The notes under the pieces were generated by a model. The model was not told the origin of the DNA. It made no database searches and worked only from the letters and a program-made list of their open reading frames with translations. A DNA stretch of 64,000 nt from Desertivirga xinjiangensis (GTDB taxonomy: Bacteria > Bacteroidota > Bacteroidia > Sphingobacteriales > Sphingobacteriaceae): NCBI RefSeq assembly GCF_024436435.1, contig NZ_JAFMZP010000007.1, positions 1 to 64,000 on the forward strand. The letters are read 5' to 3'. Within the stretch, counting starts at the first letter, position 1. Each line of letters starts with the position of its first letter. A program made the position numbers and the translations under genes. Shown here piece after piece: positions 34,331 to 43,678 of this stretch.

Positions 34331-36181
34331 CTAGAAGAAGCTCAAGCCAATATTCCATCCAAACCAACCTTTCAGGTCTTTCTTGCCAATATTAAAAGTC
34401 TTAATTTCATTAGGAACAAAACTATAGTTTTCGACTGCCGAAGTTTGATTTGAGTAAAATACGTTAAAAGAAGGTCCGGCAAATACCGAAATGAGCTTAA
34501 CCGGCTTATAATGGATCAAGAAATTAGCTTTTTCAAGGATGTTGGTATAATTCCAGCTTCCCTGGTATATTTGATAATGGCTGATCTCCGGATGAAGGCT
34601 GAACTTTCTCAGCAACTGGATCTCTTTTCCCAAACCTGCACTAAACGAGTATAATTTGCTTGCATTACCACCATTTGCCCCTCCCTGCAGGACAGTATAA
34701 AGTCGCGAGGTTCCTGTTTTAACAGCGAGGTTGAAGGCTTGCAGTTCTGTAGAAAAAACAGAAATTGAGTGATACCCTCCTTTTCTCGCCAGGTTTAAAA
34801 GTCCGATATTGTATCCGCTGATACTGTCAGTAATATTAAGCAAACCGACCTGGGTACCGTCTACTTTACCTGCAAAATTGAGCAGACCAACTTGTGTACC
34901 CTTGAGCTTTCCTGCACTGAGATTCATTACTCCGGCAACCTGGACACCTTGTACCTTTCCTGCGGTGTTTATCACGCCAGTAGCTTGTACTCCTTGAATA
35001 GTTCCTGCAAGATTAATTACTCCTGAGGCCTGAGTTCCCTTCAGACTCTTTGCCAGGTTAATAACTCCCGCACCCTGGGAACCCTGCACATGTTTATGAG
35101 AAAGATTCGCCACCCCTGCAACCTGCGCACCCTTAACCTCCTCCTTTGTCCGGTTAAGTACTCCTGCAGCCTGGACCCCTGTCAGGCCGCCCCTTAGTTC
35201 ATTCAACACACCTGCAAACTGGGAGCCGGTGACACTGTCGAGCACCACATTATAAACGCCTGCGGCCTGAATTCCAAGGACCGATTCACCAACAATATTA
35301 AATACTCCCGCAAATTGCCCGTATCTGACTCCTTTTTTGTTGATGTTAAATATTCCGCCAATTTCTAATCCTTCTACTCCAGCGGTGTAACCACCCATAA
35401 TATTTACCGACAACTTGTTGACGATCTGTGAGCTCATCATACCCTGTGTGCTCAGACCCGGAGTAAATGAAAACTGAAAAGGGCTGTCAGCAAAAAAGTT
35501 TCCAATATTAACATCCTGCATTCTCTGTTTCGAGGACGTTAAGAATCTGACGAACCTCGCCTTTGACACCCGGTAGAAAGCATTATATCCATTTCCCCCG
35601 TCCGCCTGATTTTCGTCAGAACCTACTTTTACATCGGAGAGTACCATAATGGTAGTATCCCTGTAAAATTCTTTACTGAATGTTAAGGCTATTGCGGGAT
35701 TATAGGTTTTAATCTTAAGATTAAAGTGCCCGTGTTTATCCGTTATTGTAGAGCGCAACTGCTTTTTGTCGTATACACTGGCACTTCTGAGTCTGGCCCC
35801 CGAAAGGTCATCAGACACAAAGCCACTGATGTGATACGTTTGATCAGATTTTGTTACCTTCTCCGGTATAAAGTTTAATCTTAAAGGAGCATAACGGAGT
35901 ATCAGGTAATTTTCAGCTTCTTTATACTCAAACTTGTTATCCAAAATGTGATTAAGAACTTCTTTCACACTCCAGTCATCTGCATAACAGTTAATCAGAC
36001 TGTCAGAAGGAATACTTTCGCTATTATATGAAAAGGTAAATTTCCCCTCAGACTCAATCAGGTGCAGAACCTCGGCAACACTTTTTTGCCTTACGTTCAT
36101 CGATATTCTCTTGTTTAAAATGCTTTGCCCAAAGGCGAAGTGGCAAATCAGGCTCAGGGTAATTACAACGAAAGTTCTCAT
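34331..36181 (-). CDS. STN-domain outer-membrane protein with about 13 GxQxAGVxN repeats
   Basis: 616 residues. Signal peptide 1-19 (ending AFGQS). STN domain about 25-96 (KSVAEVLHLIESEGKFTFSYNSESI). Carboxypeptidase-like sandwich about 116-185. Then about 13 tandem units of 14-17 residues at 271-468 with consensus G-x-Q-x-A-G-V-x-N, as in GVQAAGVLN, GTQASGVIN and GTQVGLLN; the last three drift to VGLLN. The C-terminal part (470-616) is strand-rich and ends in FF like an outer-membrane protein. The repeats resemble the LA_2272-type surface repeats and may stack as a solenoid. It lies 15 bp behind fecR in the slot normally held by a TonB receptor, yet it has no plug or TonB barrel. Function is unknown. 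Confidence 0.85.
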   Translation of the reverse strand: MRTFVVITLSLICHFAFGQSILNKRISMNVRQKSVAEVLHLIESEGKFTFSYNSESIPSDSLINCYADDWSVKEVLNHILDNKFEYKEAENYLILRYAPLRLNFIPEKVTKSDQTYHISGFVSDDLSGARLRSASVYDKKQLRSTITDKHGHFNLKIKTYNPAIALTFSKEFYRDTTIMVLSDVKVGSDENQADGGNGYNAFYRVSKARFVRFLTSSKQRMQDVNIGNFFADSPFQFSFTPGLSTQGMMSSQIVNKLSVNIMGGYTAGVEGLEIGGIFNINKKGVRYGQFAGVFNIVGESVLGIQAAGVYNVVLDSVTGSQFAGVLNELRGGLTGVQAAGVLNRTKEEVKGAQVAGVANLSHKHVQGSQGAGVINLAKSLKGTQASGVINLAGTIQGVQATGVINTAGKVQGVQVAGVMNLSAGKLKGTQVGLLNFAGKVDGTQVGLLNITDSISGYNIGLLNLARKGGYHSISVFSTELQAFNLAVKTGTSRLYTVLQGGANGGNASKLYSFSAGLGKEIQLLRKFSLHPEISHYQIYQGSWNYTNILEKANFLIHYKPVKLISVFAGPSFNVFYSNQTSAVENYSFVPNEIKTFNIGKKDLKGWFGWNIGLSFF

Positions 36182-36196
36182 ACTTAAGGCAATGAC

Positions 36197-37168
36197 TTAT
36201 CGAAGAATAAATTGCTTTCCTTCTTTATCCACCTTTATTTTAAATGTTTCTGAAATGATAGCGAGTATTTGCTCTACCGGCTGGTCCTTGAATACAGTGG
36301 TGAGAGGCAGCGACTTCACTGCAGGGTTTTCTATTTTTATTTCAACGTTATAAGCTTCCGCCAATACCGAAACCAATTCTGACAGCGGTGTAGCTTCACA
36401 TACAAATTCCCTGCTACGGTAATAATTATATAATTTGCTATCCGAGGCATCTTTTGTCAGATTACCGCTTAAGGAGTCAACTTCTGCCATTTCTCCCGCC
36501 CGAAGTTCTACCACGTCAGCATTTTTTGCAACCTTCACAATTCCGGTCTCTACTATCACCACTGTTTTGCCTTCACGACTTTTAATATTAAATGAAGTCC
36601 CGACAACGGTTACCTTAACATTGTTAACGCTGATGACGAAAGGCCTGCTTTTGTCTGGCTCAATATTGAAAAATGCTTCTCCTGTTAATACAACCGCCCT
36701 GGTGTTGCCTTTGAATTTTTCAGGGTAACGCAAGCTGCTGTTTTTGTTCAGAGTTATTATTGATCCGTCAGATAGGGTATCAATCAGAATGTTATCGACA
36801 CTGTTAAGGGCTACCACTTGCGAAGGTGAATTTTGGTATTGATGATAAACAAACCAGGCAGCAGTGCAGCCAATAATGAGAACTGCTGCTATTCTGATCC
36901 AATAGGTCAGAGAGCGTACTGGGGGTTCATGTTTTTTAAGTTTTATGCGTTCTTCAAAACGTTCCCATGCGGCATCCCCGCTCACCGTGCTGCTCATCAC
37001 CGCTTGTTCAGTATTATCCCATATCAGTTTGAAATGTTCAAAATACCTGCTGTTTTCCTTTGAACTTTGGATCCATTGCTCAGCAGAAGCCGCTTCTTCC
37101 GGGCTCGCTTCTCCTGCCAGATATTTTACCAGAAGCTCGTCGTTCATATTTGAATTATCCACGTTCAT
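36197..37168 (-). CDS. FecR-family anti-sigma factor
   Basis: 323 residues. An N-terminal cytoplasmic helical part (DELLVKYLAGEASPEEAASAEQWI), one transmembrane helix at about 89-108, then the periplasmic FecR domain (SVDNILIDTLSDGSIITLNKNSSLRYPEKF, GEAFFNIEPDKSRPFVI) and a C-terminal STN-like domain (FVCEATPLSELVSVLAEAYNVEIKI). FecR proteins bind the sigma factor inside and read a signal from an outer-membrane STN-bearing partner outside. It overlaps the sigma gene by 4 bp (ATGA). Confidence 0.94.
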   Translation of the reverse strand: MNVDNSNMNDELLVKYLAGEASPEEAASAEQWIQSSKENSRYFEHFKLIWDNTEQAVMSSTVSGDAAWERFEERIKLKKHEPPVRSLTYWIRIAAVLIIGCTAAWFVYHQYQNSPSQVVALNSVDNILIDTLSDGSIITLNKNSSLRYPEKFKGNTRAVVLTGEAFFNIEPDKSRPFVISVNNVKVTVVGTSFNIKSREGKTVVIVETGIVKVAKNADVVELRAGEMAEVDSLSGNLTKDASDSKLYNYYRSREFVCEATPLSELVSVLAEAYNVEIKIENPAVKSLPLTTVFKDQPVEQILAIISETFKIKVDKEGKQFILR

Positions 37169-37797
37169 CTCTTTCTGTTAAATAAGTCAAATAATATAAA
37201 CAGGATAAGAGGCAGAAACTCGGTGAGTTTCAGTCGCATGATTTTTAACGCTTTACCCATTTGATTCTCCACCGTTTTAATCGACAGACCTAACTGATCG
37301 GCGATTTCCTGGTACTTTAGCTGTTCAAACCGGCTCATCTGAAAAATCAAACGGCATTGCTGCGGTAGGTCGTTCAATGCCGATAGGATCTGCTTTTCCA
37401 GTTCAGATGCAATTACTTTACCCTCCGTTTGCTCCTGTGCTTCTTCCATTGTGTTAGAATAATGCAATTGATAATCAGCTTTTACTTTCTGGTGTTTCAG
37501 GTAATTCAAACTTTCATTGTGTACGGCGCGGTACAAGTACGCTTTCAGCGATGCCTGGACATTAAGTTGATCCCTCTTTTCCCATATTCGGACGAAGACG
37601 TTCTGAACAGCTTCCTCGGCAAGAGCCTCATCCTTTACAAACATCATAGCATATGAATGAAGGCTTGTAAAATACTGCTTAAAAATCCTTTCAAACGCTT
37701 TATTGTCGCCTGTTTGAAGTAACTGGATATCTGTTAATGCGGTTGCCTCCACTAATGAACTTTGGGTTACGTCCCTCAAAGATATAGCTTTAATCAA
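37165..37797 (-). CDS. ECF sigma factor, FecI-like
   Basis: 210 residues. Region 2 at about 30-100 (AFERIFKQYFTSLHSYAMMFVKDEALAEEAVQNVFVRIWEKR) and region 4 at about 135-195 (LPQQCRLIFQMSRFEQLKYQEIADQLGLSIKTVENQMGKAL) are complete. The start is uncertain: TTG at 37797 gives 15 extra residues, and GTG at 37752 begins at EATALTDIQLL. There is no in-frame ATG before region 2. It is first in a three-gene operon with fecR and the STN-repeat gene. Confidence 0.9.
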   Translation of the reverse strand: MIKAISLRDVTQSSLVEATALTDIQLLQTGDNKAFERIFKQYFTSLHSYAMMFVKDEALAEEAVQNVFVRIWEKRDQLNVQASLKAYLYRAVHNESLNYLKHQKVKADYQLHYSNTMEEAQEQTEGKVIASELEKQILSALNDLPQQCRLIFQMSRFEQLKYQEIADQLGLSIKTVENQMGKALKIMRLKLTEFLPLILFILFDLFNRKR

Positions 37798-37882
37798 TTG
37801 TTCTTTTAAGGTGATACAATTTAAAAAGAAAATACCCCTACGCGTGCCAACAAAATTCTAAATAAAATTATTTATAAGCTTA

Positions 37883-40072: not shown

Positions 40073-43000
40073 ATGTTGTTAAGGAGAATACTTTACATGG
40101 TGTTTTTTACCTGTATTGTTTTCGGTGCCCTACGGTCAGGGGCGCAAGGCACCTCAAATAAAGGAACAGACTTTTGGGTGGTATATGCAGGGCATGTTGA
40201 TAGTACGGCATCAAGGCTTACTTTATTTATCACTTCTGAAACTGCTTCTAACGTAACTATAACTGCTGGGAACGATACTTTGAGCAAGGTTTCACTTATT
40301 GCAAATCAGGCAAGAGCCGTGGTAATTAACCCAAATCAGGTTGACGTATACGTAGATATCCGAGATGGAATAGAGAGCCAAAAAGGCATTCATATAAGTT
40401 CGGATAAACCGGTGGTCGTTTATTCAATGATTTCACATGAGGCCAGATCTGCTGCTTGCTTAGTTTTTCCCACCAGGGCCTTAGGCAGCGATTATTATGC
40501 CATAGCTTATGATCAGATAGAAAGTTCCCGCTTCGAAACCCGCTTGTCGCAATTCACCATTGTAGGTGTAGAGGATAGTACAAAAATTGAGATCACCCCT
40601 AGTCAGAATAGTGTGGCTAATGCTGCTCACAGAGCCGGAGTTCCCTTCGGGATAATCCTTAATAAAGGAGATGTTTATCAATACCAATCAACCGGAGATC
40701 TATCGGGTTCGAGGATCCGGACGGCAACCGGCTGCACTCCATTTGCCGTGTTTTCGGGCAGCTCGAAGAATGGCTTTTGTGAAGACGGCAATACTACAAA
40801 CCCAAATAGTCCTTCCGGGCATGATAATTTATACCAGCAGCTGCTACCGGTTACTGCATGGGGTAAGAATTTTATATCAGCGCCCTTCTATAATACTCTA
40901 CATGGAAGTGTAGACATATATCGCATCCAGGTGGCCGAAGATAGTACCACCGTTAAAATAAATGGATCAACAACATCAATCAATGGGGACACACTCGCGA
41001 ACCCCTATATGAAAGGAAGTATAATTACTTTTTTCAGCCAGGAGGCGAATGTGATAAATGCCGATAAGCCTATCAATGTTACGCAGTTTCAAACGTCGCA
41101 GAACTGTAATCCGCAAAACGAGGGTTACCAGGGTAACCAAATCCCATATCCAGGCGACCCGGAAATGACCATACTTAATCCTATTGAGCAGACTTTAAAG
41201 GATGTCACCGTGTATTCAGCCATTTCTACTGCCGCAGCCCCAACCTCCATTACTAAGCATTTCATCAATGTAATTATCAAAACGGTCGACGCCGGTACCT
41301 TAAGTGTTGACGGAGCGCTTATACCAGCAGCCAATTTTACCCCTATCAACGCCGAATACAGCTATACCGTCATCGATGTCACTCAATCCTCACAGACTAA
41401 TCCAACGCATCGTGTACGGGCAGACGGAGGTTTCGTAGCCATTGCTTACGGATACGGGCAATTTGAATCATATGGCTATCTGGCGGGATCGGATCTGAAA
41501 AATTTGAATAAATTCATTCTCCCTGAGAATTCCTCAACGGGACAAGCCCTCACTTCTGGATGTACAGGAAGTCCATTCAATTTATTTGTAGTGCTGCCTT
41601 TTATGACCCCAAGGTTGACATGGGAGCTGGACAGCGGGGTGATCATTACTGACACTAATCCGCAGTACACAGTAATAACCCAGAATGGAGAAACTTTATA
41701 TAAGTATAAATACCTCAACACAAGTCTTTCTTATCCAGAACCGGGATCGTATCTTATCAAAGCCAGCGCTATTAATCCTGCGCCCATTGGCTGTGACCCG
41801 AATGAAGTGATCGAGCTTAGTTATGAAGTTTTCGATTTTCCTATAGCTGATTTTCAGACCTCTGCTCCATTGTGTCAGGGACTTCCGGTAATTATTACAG
41901 ACAAAAGCTCCGGAAATGGGCAAAATATAAGTAAATGGCACTGGGATTTCGGCGACGGAAGCCCGGTGGAAACCCGCTTATCTGCCGATCCATTTACACA
42001 TGTCTATGCGGCAAGCGGTAATTACACCATCAGTCTTGTTGTTGAAACGGGTTGTCTTTCTCAAGCCAAAACCCTGGCAGTAAATGTAAATCCCTCAGCT
42101 ACAGCCAGGTTTGTTTATACTGCCCCTGCCTGCGAGACTTTGGAAGTGGCTTTTACTGATCAGTCTGTAATTAGTGCAGGATCTGTGGAGAAATGGATTT
42201 GGGATTTTGGAGATCCGGCTTCTGGCCTGAAAAACGTATCTGATATTCAGAATCCTGTCCATATCTTTTCGCAAAGCGGAACTTACCGGGTTAAACTAAC
42301 AGTAACAAGCGATCAGGGCTGTGCTACAGCAACAGAGCTTGATGTGATTGTTAATATTTTACCTCTTGCAAACTTTACCGTGCCAGAGGTCTGTCTGACA
42401 GATGCAGCCATTTTCGTTAATACCACAAGCTTTGCTGGTAATGCCGCTGAATTACATTATACATGGGACTTTGGCGATCCCGATGGCGTGAACAATATCT
42501 CCCAACAAAAAGACGGTGCGCATAGGTTCAGCGGCGAGGGCGACTTTAGGGTGCGGCTGACAGTAACATCGGCAAGCGGATGTAAGACCATTGAGGAAAA
42601 GATAGTCACAGTAAGCAGCCCTAACCCCCAAGCTGACTTTTCTATGAGCCAGGGATCAATTTGCAGCGGCTCCGAAGTAGTGTTTGAAGACAAGTCTTCG
42701 GTACGAACGGGCAGTATCACCCGGATAGAATGGTACTTCGACGATACGGAACATGCTAACAGCCCGTCATTCTCCCTTGCAGAGGATAACCCTCAGGATG
42801 TTCCTGGCAAGAAGTATTCTTTTACCTATCCCGTAACTCATAATACAACACCAAAATTGATCAATGTGAGAATGAGAGTCTTTTCGGGCGAAAATTGCTA
42901 CAATGACCATGTTCAGCAGCTGACCATTACGGGAAAGCCGCAGATTGAATTTAACCCTTCTGTTGCGGTTTGCGAACAGGACGATGCGTTCCAGCTAAGC

Positions 43001-43678
43001 GCCCGGGAGATCAACGGCTTCGCTGCAAGCCAGGAGCGATATTCAGGTGATGGAGTTTCTCCGGAGGGAATATTCAATCCCAGGCTTGCAGGTGTGGGCA
43101 ACCATACCATAATTTATACATTCATAACAACTGATGGTTGCCAGGAAGAAGGATCGCAGACTATCCGTGTGAATCCAATGCCGCAGATAAGCGAGATATC
43201 CGATGTTACCATGATCAGGGGAGGGGAGGTCAGGTTGCCTGTTGAAGCGGAGGGGCAGAACCTCACTTACAAATGGACACCATCTGCCGGTCTGAGCAAT
43301 GATGGCGTTCTGAACCCCGTAGCGTCGCCTGCAGAGGAGACCTCATATCAGTTAACCATAAGCAGTGGGGCAGGCTGTACTATTACGGCAAATGTTCTTG
43401 TTAAAATTAAAGAATCGCCCGAGATCCCAAACGCTTTTTCGCCAAATGGAGACGGAATTAACGACACCTGGAACATTCCATATCTTCAAACACTGCCAAA
43501 GGCAACTATTAAAATATTTAACAGGTACGGCCAGGTGGTTTTTTCTTCAGGTCAATACCATGAAGCCTGGGATGGAACCGATCATTCAAAAGAGCTCCCT
43601 TCAGGAGTATATTATTATATCATTGAGCCTAATAACGGGAAAAAGCGGCATTCGGGCTCAATAACATTGCTTAGGTAA
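40073..43678 (+). CDS. Secreted PKD-domain protein with T9SS type B sorting domain
   Basis: 1201 residues. A signal peptide (about 1-24) is followed by an IgGFc-binding-like domain (about 28-440, beginning GTSNKGTDFWVVYAGH). Several PKD domains follow (from about 600, marked by HWDFGDGSP, IWDFGDP and TWDFGDP), then Ig-like modules. The C-terminal gliding-motility/type B sorting domain starts near IPNAFSPNGDGINDTWNIP and ends GSITLLR. Such proteins leave the cell by the type IX secretion system and stay on the surface or are shed. Ligands are unknown. It starts 51 bp after the lipoprotein gene. Confidence 0.93.
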   Translation: MLLRRILYMVFFTCIVFGALRSGAQGTSNKGTDFWVVYAGHVDSTASRLTLFITSETASNVTITAGNDTLSKVSLIANQARAVVINPNQVDVYVDIRDGIESQKGIHISSDKPVVVYSMISHEARSAACLVFPTRALGSDYYAIAYDQIESSRFETRLSQFTIVGVEDSTKIEITPSQNSVANAAHRAGVPFGIILNKGDVYQYQSTGDLSGSRIRTATGCTPFAVFSGSSKNGFCEDGNTTNPNSPSGHDNLYQQLLPVTAWGKNFISAPFYNTLHGSVDIYRIQVAEDSTTVKINGSTTSINGDTLANPYMKGSIITFFSQEANVINADKPINVTQFQTSQNCNPQNEGYQGNQIPYPGDPEMTILNPIEQTLKDVTVYSAISTAAAPTSITKHFINVIIKTVDAGTLSVDGALIPAANFTPINAEYSYTVIDVTQSSQTNPTHRVRADGGFVAIAYGYGQFESYGYLAGSDLKNLNKFILPENSSTGQALTSGCTGSPFNLFVVLPFMTPRLTWELDSGVIITDTNPQYTVITQNGETLYKYKYLNTSLSYPEPGSYLIKASAINPAPIGCDPNEVIELSYEVFDFPIADFQTSAPLCQGLPVIITDKSSGNGQNISKWHWDFGDGSPVETRLSADPFTHVYAASGNYTISLVVETGCLSQAKTLAVNVNPSATARFVYTAPACETLEVAFTDQSVISAGSVEKWIWDFGDPASGLKNVSDIQNPVHIFSQSGTYRVKLTVTSDQGCATATELDVIVNILPLANFTVPEVCLTDAAIFVNTTSFAGNAAELHYTWDFGDPDGVNNISQQKDGAHRFSGEGDFRVRLTVTSASGCKTIEEKIVTVSSPNPQADFSMSQGSICSGSEVVFEDKSSVRTGSITRIEWYFDDTEHANSPSFSLAEDNPQDVPGKKYSFTYPVTHNTTPKLINVRMRVFSGENCYNDHVQQLTITGKPQIEFNPSVAVCEQDDAFQLSAREINGFAASQERYSGDGVSPEGIFNPRLAGVGNHTIIYTFITTDGCQEEGSQTIRVNPMPQISEISDVTMIRGGEVRLPVEAEGQNLTYKWTPSAGLSNDGVLNPVASPAEETSYQLTISSGAGCTITANVLVKIKESPEIPNAFSPNGDGINDTWNIPYLQTLPKATIKIFNRYGQVVFSSGQYHEAWDGTDHSKELPSGVYYYIIEPNNGKKRHSGSITLLR

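What the first reader, a model, noticed from the sequence alone, without database searches (positions are those of the whole stretch)
34331..37797. Sigma/FecR operon whose output gene is an STN-domain repeat protein and not a TonB receptor
Seen directly: an ECF sigma gene, a FecR-type anti-sigma gene overlapping it by 4 bp, and 15 bp later a gene for a protein with signal peptide, STN domain, carboxypeptidase-like domain and about 13 GxQxAGVxN repeats of 14-17 residues. Established: in the Fec-type pathway the STN domain of a TonB receptor contacts FecR to release the sigma factor. Here no plug or TonB barrel is present. The signalling domain is joined to a repeat stack with an Asn at almost every repeat, in the manner of an asparagine ladder in a beta-solenoid. 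Inference: a surface-signalling module that senses something with a repeat stalk and does not transport it.
Basis: partly seen in the sequence, partly recalled or inferred. Interest (0 to 1): 0.72.

Follow-up and report, generated by a model that had tools for sequence, protein, structure and literature searches.

The report
Fec-type sigma switch without a transporter
A bacterial surface-to-gene signalling operon that normally uses a nutrient receptor as its antenna here uses a small membrane-anchored protein with a repeat stalk, probably switching on a separate transporter from a distance; it is a conserved variant of a well-known system.

Summary
The operon is real: ECF sigma (37165-37797), FecR anti-sigma (36197-37168) and a 616-aa STN-repeat protein (34331-36181), all minus strand. 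In the 80 best of 266 relatives, FecR lies directly upstream in 78 and sigma in 76. The other 31 FecR genes of this genome are each followed by a receptor gene with a plug; this one is not.

The barrel's loop pattern suggests that the solenoid lies in the periplasm: a spacer, not a surface stalk.

A promoter motif trained on other species (CRTAGGGGTR-N12-GTTGTMNTA) sits before this sigma gene. It also precedes a second solenoid-barrel gene (with DUF2807) in the same genome and, with two mismatches, an STN-less TonB receptor with DUF4249. So sensing seems uncoupled from transport and controls it in trans. The FecRs form one clade, next to a FecR with an ordinary STN-receptor; some relatives keep an STN-less form of that receptor beside the operon.

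Verdict: new variant of Fec-type cell-surface signalling. Ligand and TonB dependence are untested; STN-FecR docking was inconclusive.

The parts
37812..37842 (-). Promoter motif CGTAGGGGTA-N12-ATTGTATCA upstream of the sigma gene
   Evidence: Position-weight matrix trained on 21 sites of other species scores 23.7 here; next best in the window 9.0. Core pattern TAGGGGTR-N13-TTGT has 2 exact hits in 5.5 Mb.
37165..37797 (-). ECF sigma factor (TIGR02985); TTG start, true start uncertain
36197..37168 (-). FecR-type anti-sigma factor (FecR + FecR_C)
   Evidence: modelled periplasmic part matches PupR CCSSD 6ovk_R at Z 22.1, rmsd 2.9, 206 residues aligned
34331..36181 (-). STN-solenoid-barrel protein, 616 aa
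36125..36181 (-). residues 1-19, signal peptide (by eye)
   Evidence: sequence only; no signal-peptide program run
35888..36112 (-). residues 24-98, STN domain
   Evidence: beta-alpha-beta order; PilQ N0 and DotD, E 0.02-0.05; below cut-off
35630..35887 (-). residues 99-184, carboxypeptidase-regulatory-like domain
   Evidence: (below cut-off)
35492..35629 (-). residues 185-230, linker, low confidence
   Evidence: pLDDT 40-58
34781..35491 (-). residues 231-467, beta-solenoid of LA_2272-type repeats, about 14 rungs
   Evidence: pLDDT above 90 from about residue 301, 51-86 before it; beta-helix HxuA 260-442 Z 12.0 rmsd 3.3, GlmU 279-469 Z 13.1 rmsd 10.2; NF047436
34334..34780 (-). residues 468-616, 8-stranded outer-membrane beta-barrel
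   Evidence: OprF 4rlc Z 14.1 rmsd 2.7 122 aligned, OmpA 1bxw Z 12.7, NspA 1p4t Z 13.5; alternating hydropathy clear in six of eight strands over 21 rows

Best explanation
It is a Fec-type cell-surface-signalling operon in which the signalling (STN) domain is carried by a non-transporting protein. The third gene makes an outer-membrane-anchored transducer. An 8-stranded C-terminal barrel holds it in the outer membrane. A periplasmic beta-solenoid of about 9-14 rungs (about 4-7 nm) and a carboxypeptidase-like domain reach down and present STN to the periplasmic part of FecR. When the barrel loops, the solenoid or a partner senses a signal, STN contact changes, FecR is processed, and the ECF factor transcribes its own operon and others that share the promoter: a second, STN-less solenoid-barrel protein with a DUF2807 protein, and an STN-less TonB receptor with a DUF4249 protein. 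Shown here: operon conservation, predicted architecture, shared promoter motif, one FecR clade in the set tested. Inferred: topology, STN-FecR contact, direction of signalling, regulon function. Unknown: the signal.
For: Operon: FecR directly upstream in 78 of 80 loci, sigma in 76 of 80 (two of the four misses are cut by contig ends, two are orphans). In 20 regions from unnamed relatives, many of them the same records as in the 80, sigma in 20 and FecR in 20, one of these by eye. Contrast: each of the 31 other FecR genes over cut-off in this genome is followed by an 884-1229-aa gene with a plug match over cut-off. Fold; FecR periplasmic part like PupR. Promoter. A site with 2 mismatches before STN-less TBDR-DUF4249 in this genome; that TBDR is 70% identical to TBDRs next to the operon in two relatives, where an exact core site also precedes them. 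FecR tree: 32 of 32 on one side of a branch, SH-aLRT 99, next (96) to the FecR of an 884-aa STN-TBDR. STN-less TBDRs beside the operon in 12 of 80 loci, and in L070 and L078, are 38-52% identical to that TBDR from its residue 108-122 on, i.e. after its STN.
Against: No docking of STN on FecR was obtained: the joined FecR-STN chain gave pTM 0.44. The core motif pattern was written after I had seen this genome's two sites, so adds only that no other exact site exists. Genome-wide counts of the core in 20 relatives (36) do not exceed the reversed pattern (35); 20 of the 36 lie in the loci, but several of those are sites from which the motif came. With up to 3 mismatches the reversed control gives more hits (48) than the motif (13) in this genome, so the TBDR-DUF4249 site rests on position and relatives. 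Against the first control set (upstream of other ORFs, 1% level 29.7) the window's site (23.7) does not pass; that set held regulon promoters. 9 of 80 loci show no motif over score 10. Two relatives keep the STN protein without sigma or FecR. Relative placement of domains is not determined (pTM 0.55).
Confidence: 0.68

Rival explanations
1. The solenoid is surface exposed, as in an autotransporter passenger or surface adhesin, and directly binds an extracellular target; STN is released or reaches FecR only before export.
For: NCBIfam calls the repeats 'surface repeat'; beta-solenoid N-terminal to a C-terminal barrel is the autotransporter order (recalled); beta-helix HxuA and a phage tail fibre are among the matches.
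Against: The barrel is predicted with 8 strands and matches OmpA/OprF/NspA-type barrels, too narrow to pass a passenger (recalled); tight turns and the 25-residue loop put both ends on the periplasmic side (inference); an exported STN could not meet FecR, yet FecR stands next to the gene in 78 of 80 loci.
Confidence: 0.12
2. A broken or remodelled Fec system: the STN protein is a decoy or remnant, and the sigma/FecR pair is driven by other STN receptors in trans.
For: 31 other FecR-linked receptors exist in the genome; the STN hit is below Pfam's cut-off; two orphan copies lack sigma and FecR.
Against: Gene order is kept over many genera and at least three families named; STN residues F48, F50, S51, Y52, D60 and S61 are invariant in 21 rows chosen for matching the whole protein; its FecRs group together.
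Confidence: 0.12
3. The STN-less TonB receptor of the regulon is the true ligand receptor and hands the signal to the STN protein by direct contact in the outer membrane, i.e. one receptor split in two polypeptides.
For: In some loci an STN-less TBDR, related to the STN-TBDR of the neighbouring FecR branch, lies beside the operon behind the same motif; similarity to that receptor begins after its STN.
Against: The TBDRs are of two different families in different lineages; no physical contact was tested; by a size filter plus two loci seen in the other set, I identified such a receptor in only 17 of the 80 loci.
Confidence: 0.25

Closest known systems
Fec/Pup/Fox-type cell-surface signalling (FecA-FecR-FecI, PupB-PupR, FoxA-FoxR-FoxI)
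   Same: ECF sigma and FecR in one operon; FecR periplasmic fold as in PupR 6ovk; a predicted outer-membrane protein with N-terminal STN
   Different: the STN carrier has no plug and an 8-stranded barrel with a solenoid; a transporter without STN seems to be a target in trans
LA_2272 surface repeat family (NF047436) and VC2662 family (NF047437)
   Same: repeat over cut-off for NF047436
   Different: STN and carboxypeptidase-like domains added; operon with sigma and FecR; VC2662 match far under its cut-off (27 of 140 bits)
OmpA/OprF/NspA/OmpX-type 8-stranded barrels
   Same: predicted fold of residues 468-616
   Different: barrel is C-terminal, with a large part N-terminal to it; 5-14% identity in the listed rows
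Neighbouring system of the same genome, G000:C5 (sigma, FecR, 884-aa STN-TBDR)
   Same: nearest FecR by tree among those tested; a similar motif lies in its sigma-FecR gap
   Different: STN-receptor: STN and Plug matches just under Pfam's cut-offs, plug over cut-off in the genome search
BT2172-BT2173 type TonB transporter with DUF4249 (PMC11003636, passages read)
   Same: receptor plus DUF4249 gene pair as in the proposed regulon
   Different: the passages read do not link the pair to a sigma/FecR/STN-solenoid operon; not compared by sequence here

Membership tests
Fec-type cell-surface signalling | ECF sigma gene beside a FecR anti-sigma gene | tested here: met
Fec-type cell-surface signalling | FecR periplasmic part with the PupR-type fold | tested here: met
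   6ovk_R Z 22.1, rmsd 2.9, 206 aligned of 213, on a predicted model
Fec-type cell-surface signalling | outer-membrane protein with N-terminal STN domain | tested here: met
   by model and weak Foldseek matches; Pfam STN below its cut-off; outer-membrane location is inferred from the predicted barrel
Fec-type cell-surface signalling | STN carrier is a plugged TonB-dependent transporter | tested here: not met
   no Plug (E up to 1) or on this gene; model shows solenoid plus 8 strands
Fec-type cell-surface signalling | STN binds FecR | tested here: inconclusive
   joined chain, pTM 0.44
Fec-type cell-surface signalling | sigma transcribes its own operon | tested here: inconclusive
   shared promoter motif upstream; no transcription data
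Fec-type cell-surface signalling | signal needs TonB energy | not testable with these tools
   no TonB-box search was run
LA_2272 repeat family (NF047436) | repeat score over the curated cut-off | tested here: met
   30.5 against 25 bits
Type V autotransporter | C-terminal 12-stranded barrel that exports the solenoid | tested here: inconclusive
   model has 8 strands after residue 468 and the best matches are 8-stranded barrels; BrkA and EspP barrels appear in Foldseek only at E 0.08-0.1

The most novel reading that the evidence does not exclude
A TonB-independent class of cell-surface signalling: a non-transporting outer-membrane barrel carries STN at the end of a periplasmic solenoid 'ruler' of variable rung number, reads the state or depth of the envelope (or a loop ligand), and controls a separate, STN-less transporter and its own STN-less paralogue in trans.
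Probability: 0.35. Interest if true: 0.76.

Novelty: new variant of a known kind. Interest (0 to 1): 0.63.

Why it matters
In Fec-type signalling the receptor that imports the ligand also reports it, so sensing, TonB energy and transport are hard to separate. Here sensing seems to sit on a barrel that cannot transport. That makes it directly testable whether TonB energy, plug movement or mere STN release drives FecR processing. The operon is found in Sphingobacteriaceae, Chitinophagaceae and Dyadobacter, so at least one FecR/sigma branch there does not use a TonB receptor as its own antenna.

Tried and rejected
A longer promoter pattern had the spacing one base too short and hit neither known site; repeated with the right spacing. 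The first control for the promoter matrix (450 regions upstream of other ORFs in the same loci) was unfit: its top scores (32.1, 31.1, 30.4, 30.2, 29.7) equal those of sites before DUF6134-like, receptor-size and epimerase genes listed, so it held the same promoters. By its 1% level (29.7), 1 of 75 sigma regions passes and the window does not. I used reversed sequences instead (maximum 6.0 over 75; 10 hits against 97). Of those 97, up to 21 are training sites. Docking of STN on FecR: inconclusive. Comparing residues 1-184 of the window protein with the 31 receptors gave best hits of 23-26% identity to receptors other than the C5 one, so the source of the STN itself is unresolved. Literature: searches (open-licence PMC papers only) listed no paper that I recognised, from title and start of abstract, as describing an STN-solenoid output of a FecR operon. 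A 2022 review of ECF signalling has no occurrence of the word STN in its main text (PMC9249621, passages). One paper prints the gene name 'STN and carboxypeptidase regulatory-like domain-containing protein' in a Parabacteroides expression table (PMC12893687, passage), so such proteins are already named in databases. Families not listed by the structure searches are not excluded.
Full report
What is there. Three genes on the minus strand form a tight operon. The sigma factor belongs to TIGR02985 and the second gene is a FecR anti-sigma factor with both FecR and FecR_C over cut-off. The third encodes 616 residues. Pfam finds CarbopepD_reg_2 and STN only below its cut-offs, while NCBIfam's LA_2272 surface-repeat model is met.

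Conservation. A search of 201 genomes of the same family gave matches at E <= 1e-20 in 75, in 15 of 25 genera. A scan of GTDB contigs confirmed 266 relatives, of which the best 80 were kept; titles include Pedobacter, Mucilaginibacter, Chitinophaga, Niastella and Dyadobacter. Among those 80, FecR lies directly upstream on the same strand in 78 and sigma in 76. L102 and L165 lack sigma because the contig ends; L146 and L151 show neither gene. In 20 regions chosen from the matches, all 20 have the order sigma-FecR-STN protein (FecR of L078 recognised by eye). Over 395 genomes of the phylum, 20 match at E <= 1e-40; seven of these (G279, G305, G316, G361, G444, G476, G555) list only query residues from 231 or later, i.e. 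solenoid and barrel without STN.

Uniqueness in the genome. One search listed 39 matches to FecR_C. By position and context, 32 are FecR genes, six are STN domains of receptors, and one is a 462-aa hydrolase-like protein. I compared the positions by hand: each of the 31 FecR genes other than the window's has a Plug match over cut-off within about 1.4 kb downstream, in genes of 884-1229 aa. The window's FecR has none.

Architecture. An alignment of 21 family members (A1) gave an AlphaFold2 model with mean pLDDT 84 and pTM 0.55. Residues 99-184 match MG/C3 domains. Residues 231-467 match beta-helices in four of the 50 rows shown (HxuA Z 12.0, rmsd 3.3, 164 aligned; GlmU Z 13.1 but rmsd 10.2; a phage tail fibre; a tapirin). 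Residues 468-616 match 8-stranded membrane barrels (designed barrel 6x9z Z 14.4, OprF Z 14.1, NspA Z 13.5, OmpA Z 12.7). Foldseek alone gave no match at E <= 0.001. Strand alternation of hydropathy over 21 rows is clear in six of the eight strands, with differences of 1.6 to 3.5, and weak in strands 3 and 4, with 1.1 and 0.6. The hairpins that close strands 1-2, 3-4, 5-6 and 7-8 include the longest loop (25 residues, 578-602), and the opposite side has the tightest turn (2 residues, 562-563). By the usual rule for such barrels (recalled), the long loops are outside, both ends are in the periplasm, and the solenoid is therefore periplasmic. This is an inference. Solenoid length varies from 145 to 240 residues, about 9 to 14.5 rungs, in the 21 members, while the barrel stays at 142-153 residues. 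At 0.48 nm per rung (recalled) that is about 4-7 nm.

FecR. The modelled periplasmic part matches PupR's signalling domain 6ovk_R (Z 22.1, rmsd 2.9, 206 aligned) and Parabacteroides BDI_1681 (Z 23.2). In the PupR paper both subdomains are needed to bind the PupB signalling domain (PMC7186176, passages read). A joined FecR-STN chain with 23 paired rows gave pTM 0.44, so no interface is claimed.

Promoter and regulon. In the upstream regions of the STN-less solenoid-barrel genes (REP), the best spaced word pair occurs in 21 of 43, against 3 in shuffled sequence. AGGGG-N15-TTGT occurs in 22 of 43 (21 of 42 without this genome's own copy) and in 14 of 75 sigma upstream regions, the window among them. 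A matrix trained on the 21 REP sites of other species scores 23.7 at 37812-37842 and 28.0 at this genome's REP. Over the maximum of reversed sigma upstream sequences (6.0), it finds the window, 15 of 18 loci with REP downstream, 6 of 34 without REP, and 0 of 22 with REP upstream. In the last class many loci have the site before REP instead. Over the 80 loci (1.06 Mb) there are 97 hits over score 10, up to 21 of them training sites, against 10 in reversed sequence. Of the 97, 28 precede REP, 18 precede sigma, 33 precede another ORF and 18 precede none within 180 bp. By my reading of that list, 13 of the 33 precede a 776-815-aa ORF and 17 a gene whose start resembles MIPALIIWLFKKY. One gene of that kind, in L079, is DUF6134 and is followed by an epimerase and an SDR gene. 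Several of the large ORFs are STN-less receptors. At least one hit over 10 occurs in 71 of 80 loci, against 10 of 80 for reversed sequence. In 20 relatives the exact core pattern has 36 hits, no more than its reversed control (35). By my comparison, 20 of the 36 fall within the operon or REP loci (one, in G144, placed by its 4.3 kb distance), but several are sites the motif was learned from.

In this genome. The core pattern, written after seeing both sites, has two exact hits in 5.5 Mb: before this sigma gene and before the REP-DUF2807 genes on another contig (one hit for the reversed pattern). REP is 405 aa without STN and is followed by DUF2807. Allowing three mismatches in a longer pattern gives 13 hits (reversed control 48). 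Three have two mismatches or fewer: REP (1), the window (2) and C22:62025 (2); C5:24800 is one of ten with 3. The C22 site lies just upstream of an 811-aa receptor with carboxypeptidase-like domain and plug but no STN, followed by DUF4249. That receptor is 70% identical to those next to the operon in L067 and L068, where an exact core site also lies directly before it. The C5 site lies between sigma and FecR of the neighbouring system.

Origin. In a tree of 61 FecR proteins (29 receptor-type of this genome; 32 of this system, from the window and 31 picked loci), the 32 form one side of a branch (SH-aLRT 99). Their nearest neighbour is the C5 FecR (96) (quick search, no bootstrap; the only receptor-type FecRs included are this genome's). 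The C5 receptor is 884 aa with an STN match just under Pfam's cut-off (27.3 of 28.4 bits). STN-less receptors beside the operon in 12 of 80 loci, and in L070 and L078 (same records as L091 and L155), align with it at 38-52% over nearly their whole length, starting at its residue 108-122, after its STN. Receptors of 787 aa in L067, L068, L087, L088 and L096 are a different family (21-26% in partial alignments). A simple reading is that the STN moved from a receptor of the C5 type to a solenoid-barrel protein while the receptor stayed as a target; the direction is not proven.

How it probably works. Reported: in Fox signalling the signalling domain binds the anti-sigma factor and shields it until the signal comes (PMC11637429, passages). 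Inferred: here the same STN-FecR contact is carried by a non-transporting barrel, and its periplasmic solenoid bridges the distance. With no plug present, the usual route by which TonB pulls on the receptor is missing, so release may follow another cue: loop ligand, envelope state, or contact with the STN-less receptor. The signal is unknown.

Noticed in passing
G000:C23:94390-94572(-), L198: An STN/FecR_C-like N-terminus on a 462-aa hydrolase-like protein (by eye) rather than a receptor.
   Followed up: no
L146:5977-7797 and L151:5980-7761: STN-solenoid-barrel genes with no sigma or FecR found in the fetched stretch.
   Followed up: partly
L079:2001-4511 and similar loci: In a number of Pedobacter and Mucilaginibacter loci a DUF6134-like gene, an epimerase (HpnA model below cut-off) and an SDR gene stand ahead of sigma, behind the same promoter motif.
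   Followed up: partly
window 40073-43678 (+): 1201-aa secreted repeat protein whose C-terminus looks like a type IX secretion sorting domain (by eye).
   Followed up: no
L260:9801-9831(-) (G000:C5:24800-24830): A promoter-like site of the same kind lies between sigma and FecR of the neighbouring system, so the two sigma factors may share or cross-read promoters.
   Followed up: partly
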